From: Methanimicrococcus blatticola
Lineage (GTDB): Archaea; Halobacteriota; Methanosarcinia; Methanosarcinales; Methanosarcinaceae
Direction of reading: 5' to 3'
DNA length: 64,000 nt
NCBI RefSeq assembly: GCF_004363215.1
Contig: NZ_SNYS01000005.1
Span: 186,001 to 250,000 of the forward strand
A program made the translations under genes and the position numbers. How positions within the stretch are numbered: position 1 is the stretch's first letter; each line of letters starts with the position of its first letter. Below are positions 10,031 to 10,945 of the stretch, in pieces. Below the pieces are notes generated by a model. The model searched no databases and was not told the DNA's origin. It saw nothing but the letters and a program-made list of their open reading frames with translations.

Positions 10031-10092
10031 ATATCCAAAAAAGGTATTCACAGATTAAATAAATTATTGAAAAAGAATCGAGGAAAAGGAGC

Positions 10093-10140
10093 AAAGAGAA
10101 AATCAAAGAGAAAATCAAAGAGAAAATCAAAGAGAAAATC
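10093..10140 (+). repeat. 12-base tandem repeat AAAGAGAAAATC
   Basis: Four exact copies, followed by degenerate units to about 10175. It lies between two minus-strand genes. Confidence 0.85.
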
Positions 10141-10193
10141 AAAGAGAGAAGTAAAAAGAGAAAAGTCAAAGAGGAGAATCGAAGCATAGTGCT

Positions 10194-10253: not shown

Positions 10254-10895
10254 TTACCAGAATTCATACATATTGTATATCATTCCCATTTTTTCATAGT
10301 CTTCCCCGAGATTCAACTCAAAGAAATAACGGTCAACCCCGGATTTGTTCGTCGACCCTGTCATGTCAACGTACATGGTTTGCCCGTCTTCCAACGCGAA
10401 AACATTCAAGGTGTGACTTGTTGTATTCTCACCAAAAGTCAGCAGCAGGAAACCGCATTTAATGCCTTTTTGTTCGGCAGCGGCTGTCAAATCTGACGCA
10501 TAATTCACACAGACGTATTCATTTGGAATGTAAATGTTTTGATCTGTTAAATCATCCTACAAAAATTGACAAACTTCTTTTTTTGATTTATTTTCTGCGT
10601 TTTCATTCCGTGTTAAGGAAACATATGAGTTATCCGGATAAACGACAACATACCGCTGCTCGTCTTCCGTGAAGTAAACATTTTGTGTATAATAATTTGT
10701 TATTTCATATTCATCGTCTTGATTTTCTTCGTTCTCCCTGTTTGTTTGAATATATTCTGATTCATATTCTGATTCATTTGTTCCGTCGTTTATTTCTCTG
10801 GCAGTAGCAGTGCTTGAAAAACACAAACCTGTTGCCAACATCAATACAACAACCACGCGAATAATTGATTTGCTGTTTTTACCAACGAATGTCAT
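10254..10895 (-). CDS. Exported transglutaminase-like protein with an in-frame TAG (candidate pyrrolysine at residue 113)
   Basis: One reading frame of 213 residues runs from ATG 10895 to TAA 10254, broken only by TAG at 10557-10559 (residue 113). Residues 1-30 are a signal peptide (IIRVVVVLMLATGLCFSS); an acidic linker follows. After the TAG the frame continues DDLTDQNIYIPNEYVCVNYASD, then HTLNVF and MYVDMTG, the Cys-His-Asp order of transglutaminase-like proteins (Cys129, His161, Asp177). All three lie after the TAG, so termination there would leave a protein without a catalytic domain. No annotated gene in this window uses TAG as its stop. Start context is good (GGGAG, TATA box near 10946). 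Alternatives: a nonsense pseudogene, or a stop with leaky read-through. Confidence 0.75.
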
Positions 10896-10945
10896 GATGT
10901 AACTCCCTGTAATTTAGTCCCATCAATTAAATCTCGTTCGTTCAT

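What the first reader, a model, noticed from the sequence alone, without database searches (positions are those of the whole stretch)
10254..10895. Candidate pyrrolysine protein: secreted transglutaminase-like enzyme with in-frame TAG
Seen directly: the frame from ATG 10895 to TAA 10254 is interrupted only by TAG at 10557-10559; the codons after it continue without break into IYIPNEYVCVNYASD. The Cys129-His161-Asp177 set and the folded domain lie entirely downstream of the TAG, and the signal peptide and linker entirely upstream. Known: Methanosarcinaceae read TAG as pyrrolysine, so far best documented in methylamine methyltransferases. Inference: this is a non-methyltransferase, exported Pyl protein, or a regulated short/long product pair.
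Basis: partly seen in the sequence, partly recalled or inferred. Interest (0 to 1): 0.9.

Follow-up and report, generated by a model that had tools for sequence, protein, structure and literature searches.

The report
Exported cysteine-enzyme gene with internal TAG
A gut methane-producing archaeon (Methanimicrococcus) has a gene for an exported protein-processing enzyme that is interrupted by a TAG "stop" which, from conservation and from the way TAG is used throughout this genome, is almost certainly read as pyrrolysine, the rare 22nd amino acid; it adds to the few such proteins known outside methylamine metabolism.

Summary
The frame 10895→10254 (−) has one interruption, TAG at 10557-10559 (codon 113). 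The genome belongs with Methanimicrococcus and carries pylT, pylS, pylB, pylC and pylD. Whole-genome searches found orthologs in two sister species, next to scpB as here; both carry TAG at the same column. About 58 more distant relatives carry variable sense codons there (Lys commonest, then Glu). Sequence after the TAG is under strong purifying selection (dN/dS about 0.04-0.15), and no conserved start codon lies between TAG and the catalytic Cys. One correction: the TAG lies inside the conserved domain, at the end of its first helix. Fold and invariant Cys-His-Asp point to an exported papain/transglutaminase-like cysteine enzyme of a family that passes no Pfam cut-off. Genome-wide, 12 of 1,246 well-supported ORFs meet a TAG and 11 continue as coding sequence, so TAG is effectively a sense codon here. 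Best reading: Pyl is inserted routinely at a surface position that tolerates many residues; selection for Pyl chemistry is possible but unproven. The short/long product idea has no support. New member of a known kind; no proteomic proof was possible. A more striking lead outside the window: a FilR1-type regulator in the methylamine cluster with TAG in all six genus genomes.

The parts
10254..10895 (-). Open frame of the exported cysteine-enzyme-like protein, read through TAG (213 aa, TAA end)
10557..10559 (-). In-frame TAG, codon 113, predicted pyrrolysine; same column is TAG in both other Methanimicrococcus orthologs
10903..10907 (-). Shine-Dalgarno-like GGGAG upstream of ATG 10895
   Evidence: sequence
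10800..10895 (-). Probable Sec signal peptide (residues 1-32: basic start, hydrophobic core VVVVLMLATGLCF, A-T-A end)
   Evidence: read from sequence; no signal-peptide predictor available; low model confidence residues 1-68
10656..10799 (-). Acidic, probably disordered linker (about residues 33-80)
   Evidence: pLDDT below 50 for residues 1-68
10257..10655 (-). Conserved papain/transglutaminase-like domain (about residues 81-213); spans the TAG
10509..10511 (-). Cys129 codon, invariant, at start of helix 129-142 (predicted nucleophile)
10413..10415 (-). His161 codon, invariant
10365..10367 (-). Asp177 codon, invariant

Best explanation
This is a functional gene for an exported papain/transglutaminase-like cysteine enzyme in which UAG113 is translated as pyrrolysine by the PylS/tRNAPyl system of the cell. 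No cis element is needed: UAG is hardly ever used to end genes in this genome, so it works as an ordinary, rare sense codon, and the full-length enzyme is made whenever Pyl-tRNA is available. Shown by computation: the frame, the conserved TAG, purifying selection downstream, the pyl genes, TAG read as sense in many genes. Inferred: Pyl as the residue inserted, export, catalytic activity. The site is probably a tolerant, solvent-exposed helix end where Pyl arose by a single change from a codon such as AAG or TTG, and it has stayed TAG in the three species found to keep the gene.
For: Complete pylT-S-B-C-D cluster in the same genome. TAG at the same column in 3 of 3 genus orthologs found, sense codons of about 15 residue kinds in about 58 more distant relatives, Lys commonest. 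dN/dS downstream 0.04-0.15 with saturated dS. No start codon conserved between TAG and Cys129; in the window the first one lies after Cys129. Same place next to scpB in the three species, absent in G002, where the coding frames of scpB and the CYTH gene almost abut. Model confidence above 90 around the TAG and invariant Cys/His/Asp. Genome-wide: 12 of 1,246 well-supported ORFs meet a TAG, 11 of them run on as coding sequence, including MtmB, MtbB and MttB. In a 91% identical pseudouridine synthase pair the same codon is TAG in one species and AAA (Lys) in the other.
Against: No peptide evidence. Some termination at UAG by aRF1 is likely, so part of the product may be truncated. Another suppressor tRNA inserting a standard residue was not excluded for the whole genome. 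Only three orthologs exist in the genomes held; three of six genus genomes lack a match, though all are incomplete. Enzyme activity is inferred from three invariant residues and a fold match of moderate TM-score.
Confidence: 0.88

Rival explanations
1. Programmed short/long pair: most ribosomes stop at UAG and the read-through share is regulated, for example by Pyl supply during growth on methylamines.
For: Rother and Krzycki 2010 (PMC2933860) report that a TAG-containing reporter in M. acetivorans gave mostly terminated product, and UAG as sense or stop is known to depend on growth substrate in Acetohalobium (PMC8211752). A stem-loop downstream of the TAG in the window folds with z = -2.57.
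Against: The short product lacks all catalytic residues and cuts the domain in two. The stem-loop is not kept in the two orthologs (z = -0.88 and 0.45). TAG is hardly used as a terminator in this genome.
Confidence: 0.07
2. Pseudogene or genuine stop: TAG ends the gene and the rest is a decaying remnant.
For: TAG is a stop in the standard code; the gene is missing from its place in one sister species.
Against: Low dN/dS downstream, intact frame and catalytic residues in three diverged species; the same TAG in three separate assemblies makes a sequencing error very unlikely.
Confidence: 0.02
3. Two separate proteins, with the downstream half started independently from an internal start codon.
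For: GTG and TTG codons exist downstream.
Against: No start codon position between TAG and Cys129 is shared by the three orthologs; in the window the first one (GTG 10508) lies after Cys129, so the product would lack the nucleophile and the invariant F111, D115 and T117.
Confidence: 0.03

Closest known systems
tRNA-His guanylyltransferase (Thg1) of Methanosarcina acetivorans with TAG-encoded Pyl (Heinemann et al. 2009, listed in PMC2933860)
   Same: A non-methyltransferase protein with an in-frame TAG in an archaeon with pyl genes; by that paper's title, Pyl appeared there by neutral evolution
   Different: Thg1 is a cytoplasmic RNA enzyme; here the protein is probably exported, belongs to a cysteine-enzyme fold, and the TAG is kept in three species
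Methylamine methyltransferases MtmB, MtbB, MttB
   Same: TAG read as Pyl by the same machinery; all three are present in this genome with in-frame TAG (recognised by eye from sequence)
   Different: There Pyl is catalytic; here the position varies freely across the wider family, so catalysis by Pyl is unlikely
Papain-like protease domain of Marasmius oreades agglutinin (MOA) and Polyporus squamosus lectin (PSL1a)
   Same: Best solved fold match (Foldseek probability 1.00, TM about 0.5 on the core)
   Different: 8-17% sequence identity, E about 2e-3, no lectin part; third triad residue is Glu in MOA (own knowledge), Asp here
Transglutaminase-like superfamily (Pfam Transglut_core PF01841; LapG-type proteinases)
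   Same: Cys-His-Asp order, Cys at a helix start followed by strands; three family members give weak PF01841 matches
   Different: All matches are below the Pfam cut-off (13 vs 23 bits)
Archaea that read all TAG codons as Pyl (a 2025 report by Kivenson and colleagues, recalled from memory; not found in the library)
   Same: Near absence of TAG as terminator and many in-frame TAG genes
   Different: Whether Methanimicrococcus was included there could not be checked

Membership tests
Pyrrolysine-containing protein | In-frame TAG with coding sequence on both sides | tested here: met
Pyrrolysine-containing protein | Genome encodes pylT, pylS, pylB, pylC, pylD | tested here: met
   PylS 361 bits over cut-off 178; tRNA-Pyl (CUA); neighbouring pylB, pylC, pylD frames, named by gene order and sequence
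Pyrrolysine-containing protein | TAG kept in orthologs or aligned with a sense codon in homologs | tested here: met
   TAG 3 of 3 in genus; sense in about 58 others
Pyrrolysine-containing protein | Pyl found in the protein by mass spectrometry or structure | not testable with these tools
   No proteome data available
Pyrrolysine-containing protein with PYLIS-type RNA element | Conserved stem-loop after the TAG | tested here: not met
   z = -2.57 in the window, -0.88 and 0.45 in the orthologs; reviews say the element is not required
Transglutaminase-like superfamily, Pfam PF01841 | Score above the Pfam gathering cut-off | tested here: not met
   best 13 bits vs 23
Transglutaminase-like superfamily, Pfam PF01841 | Cys-His-Asp triad in order, invariant in the family | tested here: met
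Papain-like cysteine protease fold (clan CA), MOA type | Fold similarity to solved members | tested here: met
   Foldseek probability 1.00, E 6e-4 to 2e-3, TM up to 0.50
Papain-like cysteine protease fold (clan CA), MOA type | Peptidase activity | not testable with these tools
   needs biochemistry

The most novel reading that the evidence does not exclude
Pyl113 is kept by selection for its chemistry: its electrophilic imine, on an exposed helix end of an exported cysteine enzyme, captures an amine or partner at the cell surface, so activity or anchoring depends on Pyl supply and hence on methylamine growth. This would be a selected, non-methyltransferase use of Pyl outside the cell.
Probability: 0.1. 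Interest if true: 0.85.

Novelty: new member of a known kind. Interest (0 to 1): 0.52.

Why it matters
Gene callers cut this protein at the TAG or miss its catalytic half, so proteins of this kind are invisible in databases. In this genus TAG behaves as an ordinary sense codon, so annotation of Methanimicrococcus should be redone with TAG as Pyl. The set of genes, some with TAG fixed in all species and some where TAG swaps with Lys, Ala or Gln, makes it testable which Pyl residues are passengers and which are used.

Tried and rejected
A conserved RNA element after the TAG: present only in the window sequence. Independent downstream start: rejected. Decay: rejected. Named protein family: nothing above cut-off in Pfam or NCBIfam. 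Sequence search of the PDB: no relative. Viral relatives: three distant ones only, not followed. Rfam on the window: no match. Literature search for a paper on archaea reading all TAG as Pyl found none in the held library. The distance between residue 113 and the active site could not be measured because model coordinates are not given.

Full report
Observation. The minus-strand frame from ATG 10895 to TAA 10254 codes for 213 residues and is broken only by TAG at 10557-10559, codon 113. GGGAG lies just before the ATG. The first 32 residues look like a Sec signal peptide, followed by an acidic linker; this is read from the sequence, with low model confidence there.

Machinery. G000 has PylS (361 bits, cut-off 178), tRNA-Pyl with anticodon CUA, and adjacent frames for pylB, pylC and pylD. 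PylS above cut-off is found in five of the six genus genomes held.

Orthologs. A search of 100 related genomes found two close orthologs (58-60% identity), each with exactly one TAG, in the same column: FLODDLTD, FLOSDVTY, FLOTDKTD. All three genes lie next to scpB. In G002 the coding frames of scpB and the CYTH gene almost abut and the gene is absent. A scan of 84,980 species genomes gave 62 loci encoding relatives in Methanosarcinaceae, ANME-1 and other archaea, Dehalococcoidia and a few others; apart from the same two TAG loci, the column holds sense codons for Lys, Glu, Leu, Ala, Arg and others (a handful of loci were not resolved by the motif search). The site therefore tolerates many residues, and Lys, which Pyl is built on, is the commonest.

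Selection. Over 100 codons after the TAG, dN/dS is 0.04, 0.07 and 0.15 in the three pairs, with synonymous sites near saturation; the 30 codons before it are also constrained in the pairs where dS could be estimated. Between the TAG and Cys129 no start codon position is shared, and in the window the first lies after Cys129. Decay and independent initiation are thus excluded in practice. Conservation of the TAG in three species is strong evidence that it is read, but weaker evidence that Pyl itself matters: 81 of 149 aligned residues are identical in all three.

Fold. The model has confidence above 90 through the helix that holds residue 113 (helix 105-114) and the helix that begins at Cys129. 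Cys129, His161 and Asp177 are invariant in 13- and 34-member alignments. The best solved matches are the papain-like protease domains of MOA and PSL1a, with weaker ones to NTAQ1, LapG and CPR-C4. Pfam matches to transglutaminase and papain-fold families are recurrent but below cut-off. So the protein works like a papain/transglutaminase-class cysteine enzyme but is not a PF01841 member by score.

Genome-wide use of TAG. 1.782 Mb of G000 was read in stretches. Of 1,246 ORFs with strong coding score, 773 end at TAA, 461 at TGA and 12 meet TAG; 11 of those 12 continue for 53-618 codons, nearly all with positive coding score, and only one has a near stop after four codons. A looser cut gives 19 of 1,354. 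The TAG genes include MtmB, MtbB and MttB, repeat-rich surface proteins (GLUG-like repeats by eye), a pseudouridine synthase, an AMP-binding enzyme, a radical SAM protein and a FilR1-type regulator. In the pseudouridine synthase the ortholog in G003 has AAA; in the AMP-binding enzyme two orthologs have GCA and CAA. In other Methanosarcinaceae TAG ends are also rare, 1-3% in small samples; published work holds that UAG is sense and stop at once in such archaea (PMC2933860).

Verdict. The gene most likely makes an exported cysteine enzyme with Pyl at residue 113. By precedent (Thg1, neutral appearance of Pyl; cited in PMC2933860 and PMC11467909) and by the variability of the site, Pyl is probably a tolerated residue. 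It is a new member of a known kind. A report of archaea that read all TAG codons as Pyl is recalled from memory and could not be checked here.

Noticed in passing
G000 contig C7:49655-50509 (-) (L183:9655-10509), outside the window: FilR1-type transcription regulator with in-frame TAG at codon 180; TAG in all six genus genomes (L195-L200), Tyr or Phe in the ten other-genus homologs compared. It sits in the methylamine cluster beside MtbB, MttB, a corrinoid protein and permease-like genes: a candidate Pyl-sensing regulator.
   Followed up: partly
aRF1 genes, L250 (G000), L253, L244, L249, L248, L252: Release factor motif YxCxxxF reads YHCNSEF in all six genus genomes but YHCDSxF in the 14 other genomes compared: a genus-specific Asp to Asn change at a stop-recognition motif, which might weaken UAG termination.
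   Followed up: partly
G000 C1:399252-400163 (L051:9252-10163): RluA-like pseudouridine synthase with TAG where the 91% identical G003 ortholog has AAA (Lys).
   Followed up: yes
G000 C6:57627-59252 (L173:17627-19252): AMP-binding enzyme with TAG where two orthologs have GCA (Ala) and CAA (Gln).
   Followed up: yes
G000 C2:27232-31356, C2:55304-57664, C2:225118-226977, C9:2430-3131 and beyond: Repeat-rich surface-type proteins with one or two in-frame TAGs each.
   Followed up: no
window 10060-10180 (-): Run of near-identical TTTCTCTTTGATTTTCTC units between this gene and the CYTH gene.
   Followed up: no
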